Translations under genes and position numbers: made by a program | The notes under the pieces: generated by a model | What the model saw: only the letters and a program-made list of their open reading frames with translations | The model's database searches: none | What the model was told of the DNA's origin: nothing | Shown here: positions 32,363 to 63,487 of the stretch, piece by piece | Layout of the letters: every line of letters starts with the position of its first letter | Position numbering within the stretch: the first letter of the stretch is position 1 | IMG/VR virus record: IMGVR_UViG_3300033145_000274 | Span: 1 to 64,000 of that record | Source of the DNA: a virus | Reading direction: 5' to 3' (one strand) | Length of the DNA stretch: 64,000 nt

Positions 32363-34471
32363 CTACCCACGACGTACCGCTTTGCCGTAGGCACCCGTGT
32401 TTATCTTCGACACCAAATGGTCTGGCCCAACATACATGGCGTTACCCACACCACGTGGTCCACGCCTTTCACCAGCATAGCCACCCACAAATGTGTGTTG
32501 AACACCTTCGAGTTTGTTATCCATCACACGAGCCACCATATTGGCCATAAGCAAGGCAGAATATCGGTCTTTACGTAAGCGGCCTTTCCGATTACCTGGA
32601 AGTTTCACTTCGGGAGTATCCCATCTGTCTCGACCACCAGTTGTTTGGTCATGGATAATAGTGGCCAATTCATCTTTGAGTTCTTCAATCTCAACAACAC
32701 AGTCCTCAAGGGTATCATGGTCTCGTCCATGTATTTTATCTACAGAAATGGCTTCACTAATAGTAGCCGGGTCAAAATACGGAAAGAGCGTGATTTTGCT
32801 CTCAAAGTCCTTTTTCATACCATGGTTGGCATCTCGGGTGAAATCAGCTTGCGCAAACTGCACCATGTGTAGGAGATGGTTACCGGCCTCAACATCCGTG
32901 GGTTTACCCGGTTTCTCCCACCAAAATACATCAGTATCTCCTTGCTTAATCCATGGCCACAAGGGGCGTTCTCCTCTGGTGGCGTCTAATTCATCATGGT
33001 CATGCAGTGCTTCCATGATAGCAATACCACCACCCTGGGTATCAATGGCAATATGGTTAGTTGGAAACACGCGCATCAAATCACGAATTTTACGAGCACA
33101 ATAGGTATAAAACGACTTACGTTGAGTTTTACCACTTTTTTTGATACGCTCACGAAGTTCTTGACGATTGATAGACCAGCAATATACAATACGACGATGG
33201 TCTGGGTGACACTCCAAAATGACTAGTGCAAAGTTGTCCTGTTCCGACGCTGGGTCAATACCATAAATGTATTCACAATTTGGATTGCCACGAACACCCG
33301 CCGAAAACTGCACATCACCACTCGGTAATCGGATGGGGTCCTTGCATACACACGCTTCAATCAAACTACGCTTAAAGAAACCGTCGCTATCACGAGTAAA
33401 ACATGCACCATATTCCATGTTATAGATGGCTCTATGCACGGTCGCCTTGGCCTGATAGACCTGGGTTTCATCCATAAAACCAAATGGTAGTTTTGGCCAT
33501 GGTATACGAAAGATACTAAATTGTTTCCAGTCGAAACCATCTGGTACAGCACCCTTGAAGATTTCTTCTAACTTGTGAGTATCACCAGCCGATTCAATGA
33601 TTTGTTTGTAGCGTAACCAATAATCGTAAAAATGATTAAAGGCATAGTATGCCGTACCACTTACAATGGTTTGGTTTCCAAAACCAATATCTACTTCATC
33701 CGCCTCAGCGTACATACCCAAAGATTTCAGTACCTTAATACGTGTCATGTCTTTAGAACGCCGTTCGGGACTAGCGGATACCGATGCAAACCCCTTAATG
33801 ACTACTTCAAAAATTTCTAACGGAATGGATGCAAACTCATCGGCAATAGTATAGTGAGCACGCAAACCACGAATCTTTGTACCATCACCCAATGGAATGG
33901 CCACTATCTCACTCTCTCCAACATAGAAATTACAGCGGTCCACATCACGCTTGGGACCTTCATGTCGTCCCTCTCCAATCATATTCCGTAGTATGGGAGA
34001 AGCACGCCAAAATTGTTCCATGTACTCAAAGAGAAGTTTGGACTGTCGAAACGCAGCACCAACCACCACCACCTTACTACCTTGATGAAAAATAGCACGC
34101 AACATGGCATATAGAGATAGAATCCACGTTTTGCCACCTCCACGAGTCGCTATTAACATTGGAAACTTACGCTTCCATAGCTCCTGTAAGATGGTCACTT
34201 GAAAAGGCATTAAACGAATGTTAAATAGCCACTTGCATGTGTAGTAGAAGTATTCAGGCTGGGACATAAAGTCCACAATTTCCAAGACGGGATTGTTAAA
34301 AAGAGCAGCCCTGCCTGAGTCCAATAACATATTGGGTACTTGGGACTCATCAAAATCAGGTGGCAAACCCATATATTCATTGTCAACCATTGCGTCAATA
34401 GCTTCAACAGTCAACAGCTTTTTAGAAATATGTAGTCTACTCTGTGGACTGGGCAGTGTTAACGTGGACAT
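32363..34471 (-). CDS. Terminase large subunit (packaging ATPase-nuclease)
   Basis: A 702-residue motor that translocates and cuts DNA. The Walker A-like TRGGGKT is at residues 109-115; a Walker B-like HYTIADE follows. The C-terminal RNase H-like nuclease shows YIYGIDPASEQDNFA, then HIAIDTQGGG and a late acidic HDTLEDCVVEIEELKDE. Start set at 34471 (MSTLTLPSPQ) after AGAGGA; it overlaps the ERCC4 nuclease gene by 35 bases. Confidence 0.93.
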   Translation of the reverse strand: MSTLTLPSPQSRLHISKKLLTVEAIDAMVDNEYMGLPPDFDESQVPNMLLDSGRAALFNNPVLEIVDFMSQPEYFYYTCKWLFNIRLMPFQVTILQELWKRKFPMLIATRGGGKTWILSLYAMLRAIFHQGSKVVVVGAAFRQSKLLFEYMEQFWRASPILRNMIGEGRHEGPKRDVDRCNFYVGESEIVAIPLGDGTKIRGLRAHYTIADEFASIPLEIFEVVIKGFASVSASPERRSKDMTRIKVLKSLGMYAEADEVDIGFGNQTIVSGTAYYAFNHFYDYWLRYKQIIESAGDTHKLEEIFKGAVPDGFDWKQFSIFRIPWPKLPFGFMDETQVYQAKATVHRAIYNMEYGACFTRDSDGFFKRSLIEACVCKDPIRLPSGDVQFSAGVRGNPNCEYIYGIDPASEQDNFALVILECHPDHRRIVYCWSINRQELRERIKKSGKTQRKSFYTYCARKIRDLMRVFPTNHIAIDTQGGGIAIMEALHDHDELDATRGERPLWPWIKQGDTDVFWWEKPGKPTDVEAGNHLLHMVQFAQADFTRDANHGMKKDFESKITLFPYFDPATISEAISVDKIHGRDHDTLEDCVVEIEELKDELATIIHDQTTGGRDRWDTPEVKLPGNRKGRLRKDRYSALLMANMVARVMDNKLEGVQHTFVGGYAGERRGPRGVGNAMYVGPDHLVSKINTGAYGKAVRRG

Positions 34472-34928
34472 GTTCAATGGTCCTCTTAAAGATATTAGAT
34501 GCCACCTCTTTGCCATTAGCTCCACACAAAACAATATGCACACGATGGTCACACATCATCTCGGTCATTCTCTTTAGAATAAATGGACCACGAAATTTAA
34601 GATAGCGCCATTTGGATTTGGGAATACCAGAACCGACTGGATAATTCAACACGTCGGTCATATTAAACTCCAGCAAAATCCACGGATGCTGGATACCATC
34701 CAGGCGTTCAAGTTCGCGTTGAAAACGTGCTTCCGTAACGTTCTTAGCCCATTCAGAAATACTTCCTTTACGTTCAATAGCCAGAAAATTTTCCATACCC
34801 TCAAGAGTATAATCCCCAGTATCCAATTTGCGCGTATGAGTACCAGCACAATACTTAGACTTCTTCCAAGTCCAACCCTGGTCGGTTTTTTCACGTGTGT
34901 CACGTAATACTACATACTGCGAATCCAT
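34437..34928 (-). CDS. ERCC4/XPF-type nuclease
   Basis: A 163-residue single-domain protein with DTREK near residue 10, LDTGDYTLEG near 36 and the catalytic IERKGSISEW near 51, matching the GDxn-ERKx3D core of ERCC4 nucleases. No helicase or HhH domain. It starts directly after the dehydratase stop and overlaps terminase, so it is co-expressed with packaging genes. It may process branched DNA before or during packaging (inference). Confidence 0.8.
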   Translation of the reverse strand: MDSQYVVLRDTREKTDQGWTWKKSKYCAGTHTRKLDTGDYTLEGMENFLAIERKGSISEWAKNVTEARFQRELERLDGIQHPWILLEFNMTDVLNYPVGSGIPKSKWRYLKFRGPFILKRMTEMMCDHRVHIVLCGANGKEVASNIFKRTIEHVHVNTAQSTE

Positions 34929-43320: not shown

Positions 43321-43407
43321 TTACGTCAACAAGGCGGCCCCCGGCTTGACGCAACCCCTTGCTATCAAAGGATTTACGACAATCTCATAAACTCTCAAGT
43401 TTCGGCC

Positions 43408-43435
43408 TTGACTTTCCGATACACTATGATATAAT
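43408..43435 (+). promoter_or_regulatory. Early promoter P6
   Basis: TTGACT, 16-base spacer with CCGATA, TATAAT; TCAAGTTT upstream. Drives the radical SAM gene. Confidence 0.85.
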
Positions 43436-43457
43436 AGTCGTAACAAAGGGAGAAACC

Positions 43458-44153
43458 ATGTACTTGCAAATCACTACTCGTTGCAATATGTCCTGTGCTC
43501 ACTGTTGTTTTTCATGCACAAAAGAGGGGGATGACATGCCCCTCTCAGTCTTCCGCAAGGCCATTGAATTCGACTGCTACATCACACTGGGGGGTGGCGA
43601 ACCCACCCTACACAGACACTTCAATACCATGCTGCTGGAATCGCTAGCAAGCAAAGACCATGGAGAGGGGGGCTTGACAGTCATCACAAATGGCAGCGTC
43701 ACCCGCACAGCCCTATTGTTGGCAGCGTTGGCCAAGTCTAATGTACTAGATGCCCAAATTAGCCGCGATGAATACCACGACCCTATCGACCCACGAGTGG
43801 TCAGGGCCTTTGAGAAAATCGGGGAAAAAACCCGCTCCGTCACCCACCTCCAACACCACCCCGGCATCCGCAACACCACCCAACAGGACGACCCCAAACC
43901 CTACGGTAGGGGCATTGAACTATTGGGACTAGAACCAGACGACCTGGAACATGATGGTTCCGATTGTATGTGTTCCGACCACATTGTCAAGCCAAATGGC
44001 AATATCATGCAATGTGGGTGCCCCGACGCCCCCATGATAGGTGATGTAGAAAATGGTATTGGTGATTCCTGCTCGGGTGGTGGGGAGTGTTGTCATAGTT
44101 CCGAGTTTCACAACTGGTGTATAGAAAACGACCACGAACACTGGCTAGTATAA
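43458..44153 (+). CDS. Radical SAM protein with SPASM-like C-terminus
   Basis: A 231-residue protein starting MYLQITTRCNMSCAHCCFSC (AAAGGGAG upstream). C9, C13 and C16 form the CxxxCxxC site for a 4Fe-4S cluster that cleaves S-adenosylmethionine; GGGEPTLH near residue 40 is the SAM-binding GGEP motif. The C-terminus has many cysteines (CMCSDHIVKPNGNIMQCGCP, GDSCSGGGECC), like a SPASM auxiliary cluster. Such proteins modify peptides or other substrates. It has its own promoter and is flanked by terminators; substrate unknown. Confidence 0.85.
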   Translation: MYLQITTRCNMSCAHCCFSCTKEGDDMPLSVFRKAIEFDCYITLGGGEPTLHRHFNTMLLESLASKDHGEGGLTVITNGSVTRTALLLAALAKSNVLDAQISRDEYHDPIDPRVVRAFEKIGEKTRSVTHLQHHPGIRNTTQQDDPKPYGRGIELLGLEPDDLEHDGSDCMCSDHIVKPNGNIMQCGCPDAPMIGDVENGIGDSCSGGGECCHSSEFHNWCIENDHEHWLV

Positions 44154-46347: not shown

Positions 46348-46354
46348 AAACATT

Positions 46355-46423
46355 GCGGGATAGTGTAACGGCAACACGCAGCCCTCATACGGCTACACTC
46401 TGGGTTCAACTCCCGGTCCCGCG
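46355..46423 (+). tRNA. tRNA with anticodon CAT (Met or lysidine-type Ile)
   Basis: 69 bases. Acceptor GCGGGAT pairs with GTCCCGC; D arm GTGT/ACAC; anticodon arm with loop CTCATAC (one C-A mismatch at the stem top); T arm CTGGG/CCCGG with loop TTCAACT. CCA is not encoded. CAT can read Met or, if modified, Ile AUA. Confidence 0.85.
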
Positions 46424-46535
46424 ACTTAGCCAAGCAAGGTTATGAGCCTCGCAACGTGTTAGGAAGTTCCAACCTGTCGGCCCGAGAGGACAAGATACCG
46501 AGTGGAAGACACCGAGGCCCTAACGGCGCGACAAA
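46424..46535 (+). other. Possible structured RNA downstream of the tRNA
   Basis: No gene. GCCTCG (about 46446) can pair with CGAGGC (about 46513), and GTTAGG (about 46459) with CCTAAC (about 46519), in interleaved order, which would make a pseudoknot. It is co-transcribed with the tRNA and ends in a terminator. Role unknown. Confidence 0.3.
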
Positions 46536-56407: not shown

Positions 56408-56768
56408 AAAACTCACCGATGAACAAACAAAGATGGCTGCTGAAGCTGTGGTGTGCTTGGTTCAAGATAGATTATACGATGCCATTTCCCGTGGTTCAAC
56501 GCTCCACGCAGCGGAAGTTGGTCGTTGTGAGGCCGAACGAGAATGGGACAAAGACCACCCTGATAATGGAGTAGGTTGCCCCGACGGCTGGGTGAGTGCC
56601 AATCCATTTCAAGACCGAAATAACTATAAGAGTGACCAAGCCGACCGGGCGATGGAAGATGTCAAAGAATGGCGTGTGGTCAGCACGTTTGTTATGACAC
56701 GTCTGTGTAGTATGTTGAAGAATACCGAACTCGAAACCCTACGTCAGAAGGACAAAACAAATGATTAA
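56394..56768 (+). CDS. Unknown right-arm protein
   Basis: A 124-residue acidic helical protein (MQSLKKLTDEQTKMAAEAVV) with WDKDHPDNGVGCPDGWVSAN in the middle. Overlaps the macro-domain gene by 8 bases. Not recognised. Confidence 0.6.
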   Translation: MQSLKKLTDEQTKMAAEAVVCLVQDRLYDAISRGSTLHAAEVGRCEAEREWDKDHPDNGVGCPDGWVSANPFQDRNNYKSDQADRAMEDVKEWRVVSTFVMTRLCSMLKNTELETLRQKDKTND

Positions 56769-57294
56769 GTATGTCACAGGTAATTTGTTTGAGTTGATAA
56801 AGCCAGAAACATCCATCGTCATTCCCCACATATGTAACGACTCCGGTGGTTGGGGAGCGGGTTTTGTGATGGCGCTCTCGAAACAATGGCCGCCAACCAT
56901 GCTGAAGGACAGTCCAGAGTGGAAATATCGTCAGTGGTTTGATTCCAGAGACTCCCACTTCACCAAATACGACAATCCATTTAGTCTTGATAGTGTGCAA
57001 GATGTTACGCCAACCGACTACATAGTCGTAGCCAACATGATTGCACAACACGGCACCAGAAGTGCTGAAAACCCCAAGCCAATCAAGTATGCCGCTTTGG
57101 TACAGTGTATGATTAAGGTCGCCGACATGTGTCGCGACTATCGTGAAATCCATGCACCAAAGTTTGGTTCTGGCCTGGCGGGTGGCAACTGGGCGTTCAT
57201 CGAAGAACTCATTGAGGAGCTTTGGTGTAGTCGCGGAATCCCTGTAACCATTTATGAACTTCCGCCAAGGATATCACATGACGCCTCAAAATAG
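56761..57294 (+). CDS. Macro domain protein (ADP-ribose processing)
   Basis: A 177-residue stand-alone macro domain. GNLFEL at residue 7, IVIPHICNDSGGWGAGFVMA (residues ~19-38, ADP-ribose loop), VVANMIAQHG near 90 and KFGSGLAGGNW near 138 match the ALC1/Poa1-like class. It probably binds or hydrolyses ADP-ribose groups on protein or nucleic acid, which would counter ADP-ribosylation-based or NAD-derived host defence (inference). Confidence 0.88.
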   Translation: MIKYVTGNLFELIKPETSIVIPHICNDSGGWGAGFVMALSKQWPPTMLKDSPEWKYRQWFDSRDSHFTKYDNPFSLDSVQDVTPTDYIVVANMIAQHGTRSAENPKPIKYAALVQCMIKVADMCRDYREIHAPKFGSGLAGGNWAFIEELIEELWCSRGIPVTIYELPPRISHDASK

Positions 57295-61686: not shown

Positions 61687-62583
61687 ATGATGATTACCAA
61701 AATGAAACGTTTTGACGGTGGTGAAGGTAACGTATGGAAGTACGTCGTCCATTTTGATAAGCCGACACCAGCCATTGCTGAAGCCGTATTATATCGCTAT
61801 GGTTCCTTCAACGAACGCACGGTTGCGTGTTGTAGCGTGCAAAGCGGTTGTCCGGTCGGTTGTACGTTCTGTGGTACAGGCAAGAAGTTTATTCGCAATC
61901 TGTCTACTAGTGAGATAGTGCAGCAAGTCATTGAGGTTTTCAAAGACCAGGGCATTGCTGATATTAACGACAACTGCGCCAAGCTACAGATTATGTTCAT
62001 GTCTATGGGTGAGCCGTTTCTGAATTACAACAGCGTGAGCCTAGCCATAGAACAACTGCATGATTTGTATCCCAATGCCGAACTCCTGGTATCAACCATA
62101 GCTCCTATGAAACCCATGAACTTGAACGATTTCATCACTTTGTCTAAGCGATGCTCCAAGGTTGGCCTACAGTTTTCCATTCATGCGTCCGATGATACAA
62201 AACGTAACGCACTAATTCCTTACAACAAGTTGTCGCTAGTTGAACTGAGGAATTATGGAACACAGTGGTGGCATAAGACTGGGAGGAAGCCGTATATCAA
62301 TTACTGTGTTACCGAAGACTTTAATTACTACGACATGCGGCGCCTGCATCAGTTATTTCCCACCAATGTGTTCAACGTAACACTATCGGTGTTATGTTCT
62401 ACAGAGGAAACCATGAAAGAGGCTGGTTATCGTGACATACAACGTATTCGTTGGATTGCCGACGAGTTTATGTCGTTAGGATACAATGTGCGTGTGTTTG
62501 ACCCCGCTGGACAAGACGACATAGGTGGTGGTTGCGGCCAATTGTGGTATGTTCAACAACATCTACTAAGGAGCCAAGTATGA
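61687..62583 (+). CDS. RlmN/Cfr-like radical SAM RNA methyltransferase
   Basis: A 298-residue protein. C55, C59 and C62 (GCPVGCTFCGTG) form the radical SAM cluster site. C48, seven residues before C55, aligns with RlmN C118, and C283 in GGGCGQLW aligns with the methyl-carrying C355. MSMGEPFLN and the ISTSEI-like LSTSEIVQQV segment are also RlmN features. The N-terminal accessory domain of RlmN (~90 residues) is missing. RlmN methylates C2 of A2503 in 23S rRNA and A37 of some tRNAs; here the target is unknown. Confidence 0.88.
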   Translation: MMITKMKRFDGGEGNVWKYVVHFDKPTPAIAEAVLYRYGSFNERTVACCSVQSGCPVGCTFCGTGKKFIRNLSTSEIVQQVIEVFKDQGIADINDNCAKLQIMFMSMGEPFLNYNSVSLAIEQLHDLYPNAELLVSTIAPMKPMNLNDFITLSKRCSKVGLQFSIHASDDTKRNALIPYNKLSLVELRNYGTQWWHKTGRKPYINYCVTEDFNYYDMRRLHQLFPTNVFNVTLSVLCSTEETMKEAGYRDIQRIRWIADEFMSLGYNVRVFDPAGQDDIGGGCGQLWYVQQHLLRSQV

Positions 62584-63239
62584 AAGACATGACTATTACG
62601 GCTGGTCCAGGTGATAAAGTTCGATTCTTCTTCATTGACGCAGGGCGTGATGATGATATCGAACACGCCATAAGCCACAATTTACAGTTTGATAAGGTGT
62701 ATACCATTACACGTGTTGTGGTACATAAATACACTACGCGCGTATGGCTTGATGGTATATCAACGCCCGTTGGCTTCAATAGCGTGTTGTTTGTTGATGA
62801 ACAAATTGACCGTGTTGCCTCTGCCGCTCGTCGGGCATACTACACAGACCAGGAACGTCGCACCGGCCTACCGTATGATACCGATAAGATAAACATCAAA
62901 GATACAATTTATGGTATTCGCGCCCTGGTGAAAGGCATCATATTTAATGACCCAATGTATGATGTACGAGATAACGAATCATATGACATTGGCATTATGC
63001 TGATGTCGGCTCTGGTCGTTGGTCCATATTTACCAGCCCTTATTGAATTTACTGACCTGCTAGCAGAAGACCTGGCGTATTACTTTCACATGGCCATGCA
63101 GTTCAATATATTTACGGATGATGATAAGATTGCATGTGCGTGGTTTGAGAGGGACGGCGCTATGGCTTTTCTAAGCGACATATGGTGTATCCAAGGTGTC
63201 CCACACAAACAATTGAGAAACGGAGGCGTAGTATTATGA
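62580..63239 (+). CDS. Unknown right-arm protein
   Basis: A 219-residue protein starting MKDMTITAGPGDKVRFFFID, AAGGAG upstream, ATGA-coupled to the RlmN-like gene. N-terminal beta-rich part with DKVYTITRVVVHKYTTRVWL; helical remainder. Not recognised. Confidence 0.6.
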   Translation: MKDMTITAGPGDKVRFFFIDAGRDDDIEHAISHNLQFDKVYTITRVVVHKYTTRVWLDGISTPVGFNSVLFVDEQIDRVASAARRAYYTDQERRTGLPYDTDKINIKDTIYGIRALVKGIIFNDPMYDVRDNESYDIGIMLMSALVVGPYLPALIEFTDLLAEDLAYYFHMAMQFNIFTDDDKIACAWFERDGAMAFLSDIWCIQGVPHKQLRNGGVVL

Positions 63240-63487
63240 AAATACGAAACGGTTTCGTAAGCAACAGCAGTAGTAGTAGCTTTATTGTTACAGATAAGAA
63301 TCACCCATTGTGGTACTTTCTGATGGCGTTAAGCAAGGCAGGCTGTGCTGACTTTACTATTGATGAGCACAGAGTTGACGACACATGTGATAATGGAGTA
63401 TGGTTGGCTATTGGGCAGTTCAATGAGTTGGCTAACCGAAGCTTCGATTATACCGAGTTTCTCACACAAACTTCATTTAATGGGTAA
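63236..63487 (+). CDS. Protein with conserved SNSSSSSF N-terminus
   Basis: An 83-residue protein starting MKIRNGFVSNSSSSSFIVTD after GGAGG. This N-terminal motif (KIRxGFVSNSSSSSF) recurs in many otherwise unrelated bacterial and phage proteins; its meaning is unknown. The rest shows no family. Confidence 0.65.
   Translation: MKIRNGFVSNSSSSSFIVTDKNHPLWYFLMALSKAGCADFTIDEHRVDDTCDNGVWLAIGQFNELANRSFDYTEFLTQTSFNG

What the first reader, a model, noticed from the sequence alone, without database searches (positions are those of the whole stretch)
61687..62583. Phage-encoded RlmN/Cfr-like enzyme with both catalytic cysteines
The cluster cysteines, the pre-cluster cysteine (C48) and the C-terminal GCGQL cysteine (C283) needed for the two-step methyl transfer are all present, so the protein looks active. 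The N-terminal RNA-binding domain is missing, suggesting a changed substrate (phage or host tRNA, or rRNA). Cfr methylation confers antibiotic resistance in hosts; here it may tune translation or protect RNA during infection.
Basis: partly seen in the sequence, partly recalled or inferred. Interest (0 to 1): 0.75.

Follow-up and report, generated by a model that had tools for sequence, protein, structure and literature searches.

The report
Phage radical methylase linked to NAD
This phage gene encodes an enzyme that keeps the methyl-transfer machinery of the ribosome-methylating enzymes RlmN and Cfr but has lost their RNA-gripping parts, and because its relatives keep turning up inside NAD-making gene clusters, it may put a methyl group on NAD or one of its precursors rather than on RNA.

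Summary
ORF 61687-62583 (+, 298 aa) is a radical SAM protein related to RlmN/Cfr. It has the cluster cysteines C55/C59/C62, the resolving cysteine C48, the methyl-carrying cysteine C283 and the catalytic glutamate E32. All five cysteines are invariant in 100 relatives, and the N-terminal HhH2 RNA-binding domain is absent.

It is not an RlmN or a Cfr: it scores far below both curated cut-offs, forms its own clade outside RlmN+Cfr, and 28 of 32 cellular carriers also have a true RlmN. Residues that touch RNA in the Cfr-rRNA structure are replaced by other, equally fixed residues (10 of 22 contact positions against 13 of 247 others, P = 9e-7).

The gene recurs beside NAD genes. Of 30 viral records with both, 12 have it within 7 kb of NAMPT (2.4 expected); dCMP deaminase, RNR and CCA-adding enzyme show no such link to NAMPT. 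In some bacteria it lies inside NAD operons. The phage's own record encodes NAMPT, an NMNAT-like protein and a Nudix protein.

Best reading: a class A radical SAM C-methylase that modifies NAD(P) or a precursor, possibly protecting rebuilt NAD from host NADases. The chemistry and change of substrate are well supported. The NAD substrate is inferred from gene neighbourhood and untested.

The parts
61687..62583 (+). Radical SAM class A C-methylase-like gene, 298 aa (the finding)
61729..61800 (+). beta' extension kept from RlmN/Cfr (residues ~15-38, includes E32 = RlmN E105); the HhH2 RNA-binding domain that precedes it in RlmN/Cfr is absent
61828..61830 (+). C48, equivalent of RlmN C118 / Cfr C105 (proton abstraction, resolves the enzyme-substrate crosslink)
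61849..61872 (+). CX3CX2C [4Fe-4S] cluster motif C55/C59/C62
62491..62547 (+). family signature R-x-F-D-P-A-G-Q-D-D-I-G-G-G-C-G-Q-L-W with C283, equivalent of the methyl-carrying C355/C338
62580..63239 (+). downstream gene (219 aa from the ATG at 62580, no family match) whose ATG overlaps the methylase stop codon
63569..64000 (+). RNA ligase (phrog_968, KxxGTN motif), runs on past the window to record position ~64699
56761..57294 (+). possible macro-domain-like protein (assigned by BLAST clustering with the L039 protein, which hits PF01661; no direct Pfam hit)

Best explanation
The protein belongs to an unnamed family, related to but outside RlmN/Cfr, of stand-alone class A radical SAM methylases. 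It should use the RlmN/Cfr ping-pong: SAM methylates C283 (deprotonated by E32); a second SAM gives the 5'-deoxyadenosyl radical; the Cys-CH2 radical adds to an sp2 carbon of the substrate; C48 removes the proton and the C-S bond breaks to leave a C-methyl group. The substrate is not the A2503 or A37 RNA that RlmN and Cfr use. It is most likely a small adenine- or pyridine-containing molecule of the NAD pathway, with NAD(P) itself first. In phages the likely use is to mark or harden the NAD that the phage rebuilds with NAMPT and NMNAT, so that host NADase or cyclic-ADPR defences act on it poorly. Shown here: homology, conserved catalytic residues, loss of the RNA-binding domain, replaced substrate-contact residues, own clade, co-existence with true RlmN, specific linkage to NAD genes. 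Inferred: that it is active, that the target is NAD-related, which atom is methylated, and the counter-defence role.
For: Catalytic set invariant. AF2 model with pLDDT 90.9 and best PDB matches all RlmN, TM 0.69-0.76. Family-fixed changes concentrate on the residues that contact RNA in Cfr: 10/22 against 13/247, P = 9e-7; the RNA-phosphate serines become V46/M103/L134, the stem arginine R184 becomes A131, the ribose arginine R327 becomes F271 (contacts from PMC13001441). Own clade. 28/32 cellular carriers also have RlmN over the cut-off. NAMPT within 7 kb in 12/30 viral records, 2.4 expected, 0 of 20,000 simulations; dCMP deaminase 1/14, RNR 1/19 and CCA 1/18 relative to NAMPT, all at expectation. 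25 of 111 loci have a NAD gene within 6 kb, 12 directly adjacent; recurrent over the family tree. Bacterial operons: PncA-like, NAPRT, methylase, NAD synthase, second radical SAM, NadD, PncC-like, NAD kinase with overlapping ORFs in L090; nicotinamidase, methylase, NtrR-type ADPR-responsive repressor in L101 (several of these hits are below the curated equivalog cut-offs). The phage's own record encodes NAMPT, an NMNAT-like protein and a Nudix protein.
Against: In the window itself no NAD gene is adjacent; NAMPT is 49 kb away and an RNA ligase lies three genes downstream. About three quarters of the loci have no NAD gene within 6 kb, and 20 of 50 large records show no NAMPT at all (some are fragments). 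Phage accessory genes cluster by lifestyle, so a linkage does not prove a shared substrate. All characterised class A methylases act on RNA. No activity has been measured.
Confidence: 0.42

Rival explanations
1. It is an RNA C-methylase with a new RNA target (phage tRNAs, tRNA fragments or host RNA during infection), and the NAD linkage only reflects that both are counter-defence or metabolic cargo in large phages.
For: Its nearest characterised homologues act on RNA. RNA ligase, RtcB and CCA-adding enzyme lie near some members, including the window; linkage to CCA enzyme is weakly above expectation, 5/18 against 1.5, P = 0.012. Stenotrophomonas phage ANB28 has tRNAs on both sides.
Against: RNA backbone and stem contacts and the N-terminal RNA-binding domain are lost. 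RlmN needs features of the whole tRNA, and a 17-nt anticodon stem-loop is not methylated (PMC5130265). Only 16 of 85 viral loci have a tRNA within the fetched flank. The location inside bacterial NAD operons is hard to explain.
Confidence: 0.25
2. It methylates another small nucleotide or base (a (d)NTP, an ADP-ribose signal molecule, or a precursor for modified DNA), not NAD itself.
For: Same sequence evidence for a non-RNA substrate. NADAR and macro-domain genes near 8 and 6 loci suggest ADP-ribose chemistry.
Against: The recurrent and specific neighbours are NAD synthesis genes, not dNTP genes: RNR and dCMP deaminase show no linkage to the methylase.
Confidence: 0.18
3. It modifies an enzyme or protein of NAD metabolism (a C-methylated aromatic or amide residue).
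For: Linkage to NAD enzymes; other radical SAM methylases modify proteins.
Against: The NAD enzymes beside it differ (NAMPT, NAPRT, NadE, Prs, PncA), so no single protein target is shared.
Confidence: 0.07
4. It is a functional RlmN or Cfr that methylates A2503 or A37.
For: Homology and both cysteines.
Against: 105 bits against a cut-off of 290 for RlmN and 74.5 against 530 for Cfr; N-terminal domain missing; outside the clade; cellular carriers already have RlmN.
Confidence: 0.05

Closest known systems
RlmN (23S rRNA A2503 / tRNA A37 C2-methyltransferase)
   Same: Radical SAM fold (TM 0.69-0.76 to solved RlmNs), CX3CX2C, both catalytic cysteines, catalytic glutamate, beta' extension
   Different: No HhH2 RNA-binding domain, RNA-contact residues replaced by other invariant residues, separate clade, co-exists with true RlmN, NAD gene neighbours
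Cfr (23S rRNA A2503 C8-methyltransferase, resistance protein)
   Same: Same catalytic residues and predicted chemistry
   Different: Lacks W101, S103, S153, S187, R184, R327, N288 equivalents and the N-terminal domain; 74.5 bits against a cut-off of 530
Short phage radical SAM proteins of Moorella phage MTATph1, Kehishuvirus 'tikkala', Vibrio phage D479, Yersinia phage P778
   Same: Nearest group in the midpoint-rooted tree, also without the N-terminal domain
   Different: They lack both catalytic cysteines (Gly and Ile/Phe in the alignment), so they cannot use the RlmN methylation route
Phage NAD+ salvage and reconstitution pathways (NAMPT + NMNAT salvage; NARP1)
   Same: Same genomes and often the same gene cluster (NAMPT and NMNAT only, NARP1 genes were not searched for)
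   Different: The known pathways (PMC12774641, PMC13232231) rebuild plain NAD+; no methylase was found described in them

Membership tests
Class A radical SAM methylase (RlmN/Cfr type) | single radical SAM domain with CX3CX2C | tested here: met
   C55/C59/C62 invariant; AF2 model of one domain
Class A radical SAM methylase (RlmN/Cfr type) | two conserved catalytic cysteines and the glutamate that activates the methyl-carrying one | tested here: met
   C48, C283, E32 in 101/101 rows
Class A radical SAM methylase (RlmN/Cfr type) | methylates an sp2 carbon | not testable with these tools
   needs enzymology
RlmN | score above the curated TIGR00048 cut-off | tested here: not met
   105.5 bits, cut-off 290
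RlmN | N-terminal HhH2 RNA-binding domain | tested here: not met
   protein starts at the beta' extension
RlmN | placed inside the RlmN+Cfr clade | tested here: not met
   separate clades, SH-aLRT 99 each; quick tree only
RlmN | methylates A2503 of 23S rRNA or A37 of tRNA | not testable with these tools
   indirect: contact residues lost, true RlmN also present in 28/32 cellular carriers
Cfr | score above the curated Cfr cut-off | tested here: not met
   74.5 bits, cut-off 530
Cfr | RNA-contact residues W101, S103, S187, R184, R327, N288 | tested here: not met
   absent or replaced
NAD-pathway enzyme | genetic linkage to NAD synthesis genes beyond chance | tested here: met
   12/30 against 2.4 expected, three control genes negative; bacterial operons
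NAD-pathway enzyme | acts on NAD or a precursor | not testable with these tools
   inference only

The most novel reading that the evidence does not exclude
Phages and some bacteria make a C-methylated form of NAD(P) (methyl on C2 or C8 of the adenine, or on the pyridine ring) with a radical SAM enzyme related to the RlmN/Cfr lineage, so that their cofactor pool is not destroyed by NAD-degrading immune systems.
Probability: 0.25. Interest if true: 0.95.

Novelty: new variant of a known kind. Interest (0 to 1): 0.72.

Why it matters
All characterised class A radical SAM methylases modify RNA. A family with the same chemistry, a rebuilt substrate pocket and a home in NAD operons would extend this mechanism to a metabolite. 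If the target is NAD, it would be a new way for phages to beat NAD-depletion immunity: altering the molecule rather than only rebuilding it. The family is widespread (175 matching viral stretches in one collection, phages of Vibrio, Salmonella, Aeromonas and Stenotrophomonas, and dispersed bacteria), is unnamed in the libraries searched, and can be tested directly because a C48A variant should trap its own substrate.

Tried and rejected
RlmN or Cfr orthology: rejected by cut-offs, tree and co-existing RlmN. Catalytically dead homologue: rejected, catalytic residues invariant. Fused extra domains in longer members: the N-terminal extensions look like over-called start codons. The second radical SAM gene of the window (43359-44153) as a partner that recurs in NAD operons: no meaningful similarity to the radical SAM proteins of L090 or L055. 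Housekeeping gene of the order of the L090 genome: rejected, 1 of 193 genomes has the signature. Defence gene: no PADLOC hit for it or three neighbours. A control set of viral contigs chosen by dCMP deaminase to measure a base rate for NAMPT: most contigs too short, so not used; the within-record distance test was used instead. Reading E32 as an adenine-recognition residue: rejected after PMC9692996, which gives E105 a catalytic role. Literature searches found no description of this family or of methylated NAD in phages (open-licence papers only). L122 was at first counted in the family but is an RlmN-group protein; the 1/101 deviations probably come largely from this row.

Full report
Observation. 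The ORF at 61687-62583 (+) is real: 298 aa, its ATG directly follows the stop codon of the previous ORF, and its stop overlaps the ATG of the next gene at 62580. It hits the radical SAM domain in Pfam just below the cut-off (27.7 against 29.5 bits), RlmN in NCBIfam with E = 2.7e-30 over residues 29-286, and Cfr models with E about 1e-20. phmmer against the PDB finds only RlmN and Cfr. The record is a 125,079-base viral contig. The window holds a terminase large subunit (32363-34552), so 'phage-encoded' is fair.

Catalytic residues. In 101 aligned rows the cysteines C48, C55, C59, C62 and C283 and the glutamate E32 are invariant. They align with E. coli RlmN C118, C125, C129, C132, C355 and E105. 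E105 is described as the base that deprotonates the methyl-carrying cysteine (PMC9692996). The chemistry of class A radical SAM methylases is therefore very probably intact. One search pattern included the GGCGQLW motif, which could enrich for C283, but a second independent pattern (QIM[FV]MSM) was also used.

What is missing or changed. The HhH2 RNA-binding domain is absent; the protein starts in the beta' extension. I mapped the RNA contacts listed for the Cfr-rRNA cryo-EM structure (PMC13001441) onto the family. The serines that hold the 3' phosphate of the target nucleotide become V46 (S103), M103 (S153) and L134 (S187). S151 becomes Q101. The stem arginine R184 becomes A131 and the stem serine S182 becomes P129 in most members. 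The ribose contacts R327 and N288 become F271 and T232, and W101 has no counterpart. These are not random losses: the replacements are themselves fixed. Positions fixed in the family (95% or more) with a residue rare in RlmN+Cfr (10% or less) make up 10 of 22 contact positions and 13 of 247 other aligned positions (odds ratio 15, P = 9e-7). This is what a rebuilt pocket for a different, conserved substrate would look like. The mapping rests on a sequence alignment; I had no coordinates.

Phylogeny and fold. In a tree with 32 family members, 25 RlmN-group proteins, 3 Cfr proteins and other phage homologues, the family is one clade (SH-aLRT 99) and RlmN+Cfr (with three unlabelled homologues) is another (99) (quick method, midpoint root). 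Four short phage homologues, with one long-branched one, fall nearest the family, but the four lack both catalytic cysteines. AF2 with 89 sequences gives pLDDT 90.9 and pTM 0.91; the best six PDB matches are RlmN or RlmN-type structures (TM 0.69-0.76).

Not a replacement for RlmN. Of 32 cellular genomes that carry the gene, 28 also have an RlmN above the curated cut-off. In one such order only 1 of 193 genomes has the family signature, so the gene is sporadic and probably mobile.

Neighbourhood. Clustering genes around 111 family loci gave NAMPT, a Nudix group, Prs, NadE, PncA, NadD and NAPRT, plus NADAR and macro-domain proteins (identities checked on examples). 25 of 111 loci have a NAD gene within 6 kb and 12 are directly adjacent. 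In the bacterial contig L090 the order is isochorismatase/PncA-like (read by eye and by cluster, no NCBIfam hit), NAPRT, methylase, NAD synthase, another radical SAM protein, NadD, PncC-like, NAD kinase, with overlapping ORFs; in Ornithinimicrobium (L101) it is nicotinamidase, methylase and an NtrR-type ADPR-responsive repressor, again overlapping. These bacterial cases matter because phage cargo clustering does not readily explain them.

Statistical control. 30 of 50 large viral records with the gene have a NAMPT/NAPRT match. In these 30 the two genes lie within 7 kb in 12, where random placement gives 2.4 and none of 20,000 simulations reached 12. The same test between NAMPT and dCMP deaminase (1/14), RNR (1/19) or CCA enzyme (1/18) gave the expected values, and the positive control CTP_transf/NMNAT to NAMPT gave 15/21. 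The 12 close cases come from diverged members, and on a tree of 100 members NAD adjacency needs 15 changes, at least 8 of them forced by well-supported branches. The methylase also showed a weak linkage to CCA enzyme (5/18 against 1.5, P = 0.012). I have no good base rate for NAMPT in comparable phages; in the phage collection 1,912 of 50,697 records match it.

The window's own phage. No NAD gene is next to the methylase here. The record does encode NAMPT (110208-111626), a protein with a partial match to the nucleotidyltransferase family of NMNAT (105867-106979), a Nudix protein (77914-78432) and a CCA/poly(A) polymerase head domain protein (108918-109604). An RNA ligase lies three genes downstream, and a macro-domain-like gene about 4.4 kb upstream. 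The RNA rival is therefore not excluded for this member.

Mechanism proposed. Shown: homology, residues, predicted fold, clade, linkage. Inferred: activity, target, methylated atom, biological role. I think the enzyme C-methylates NAD(P) or a precursor on an sp2 carbon. For a phage that rebuilds NAD during infection (NAMPT and NMNAT; compare NARP1 in PMC12774641 and PMC13232231), an altered NAD could stay usable for redox while resisting NADase or TIR enzymes. That last step is speculation. Bacterial members in NAD operons, one of them with an ADPR-responsive repressor, suggest a role in NAD upkeep beyond phage conflict.

Verdict. It works like RlmN/Cfr in predicted chemistry and is not a member of either. 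It is a new variant of class A radical SAM methylases with an unusual and testable lead towards NAD.

Noticed in passing
L090:7815-8516, L120 (cluster 122), L055:4102-4923: A second, different radical SAM gene lies in the same NAD gene clusters as the methylase in bacteria and in one phage; function unknown.
   Followed up: partly
L148, L150, L153, L154: Short RlmN-like radical SAM proteins in Moorella, crAss-like, Vibrio and Yersinia phages lack both catalytic cysteines, so they must do something other than RlmN-type methylation.
   Followed up: partly
63182-63487 and L260:1113-4447: Several small proteins of this phage share the N-terminal motif R-x-GFVSNSSS (at least five copies among the genes after the methylase).
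   Followed up: no
window 43359-44153; record 65936-67039, 96287-97063, 119418-120365: The phage record encodes several further radical SAM-like proteins (two of the three outside the window hit PF04055; the one at 65936-67039 shows a Cys motif but no Pfam hit).
   Followed up: partly
L120:5040-5297 and L121:4980-5168: Two bacterial NAD operons carry shortened copies of the methylase (85 and 62 aa) that keep the C-terminal part; decayed genes or assembly errors.
   Followed up: partly
record 93067-98375: Gene group that reads like surface-sugar synthesis (aminotransferase, epimerase, cytidylyltransferase, repeated glycosyltransferase-like ORFs); judged by eye only.
   Followed up: no
window 46354-46425: A single tRNA with CAT anticodon in the phage window.
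   Followed up: no
OR529408.1 96528-97367: A member of the methylase family in Stenotrophomonas phage BUCTxx99 lies under a feature annotated 'prohibitin family protein', apparently a wrong name.
   Followed up: no
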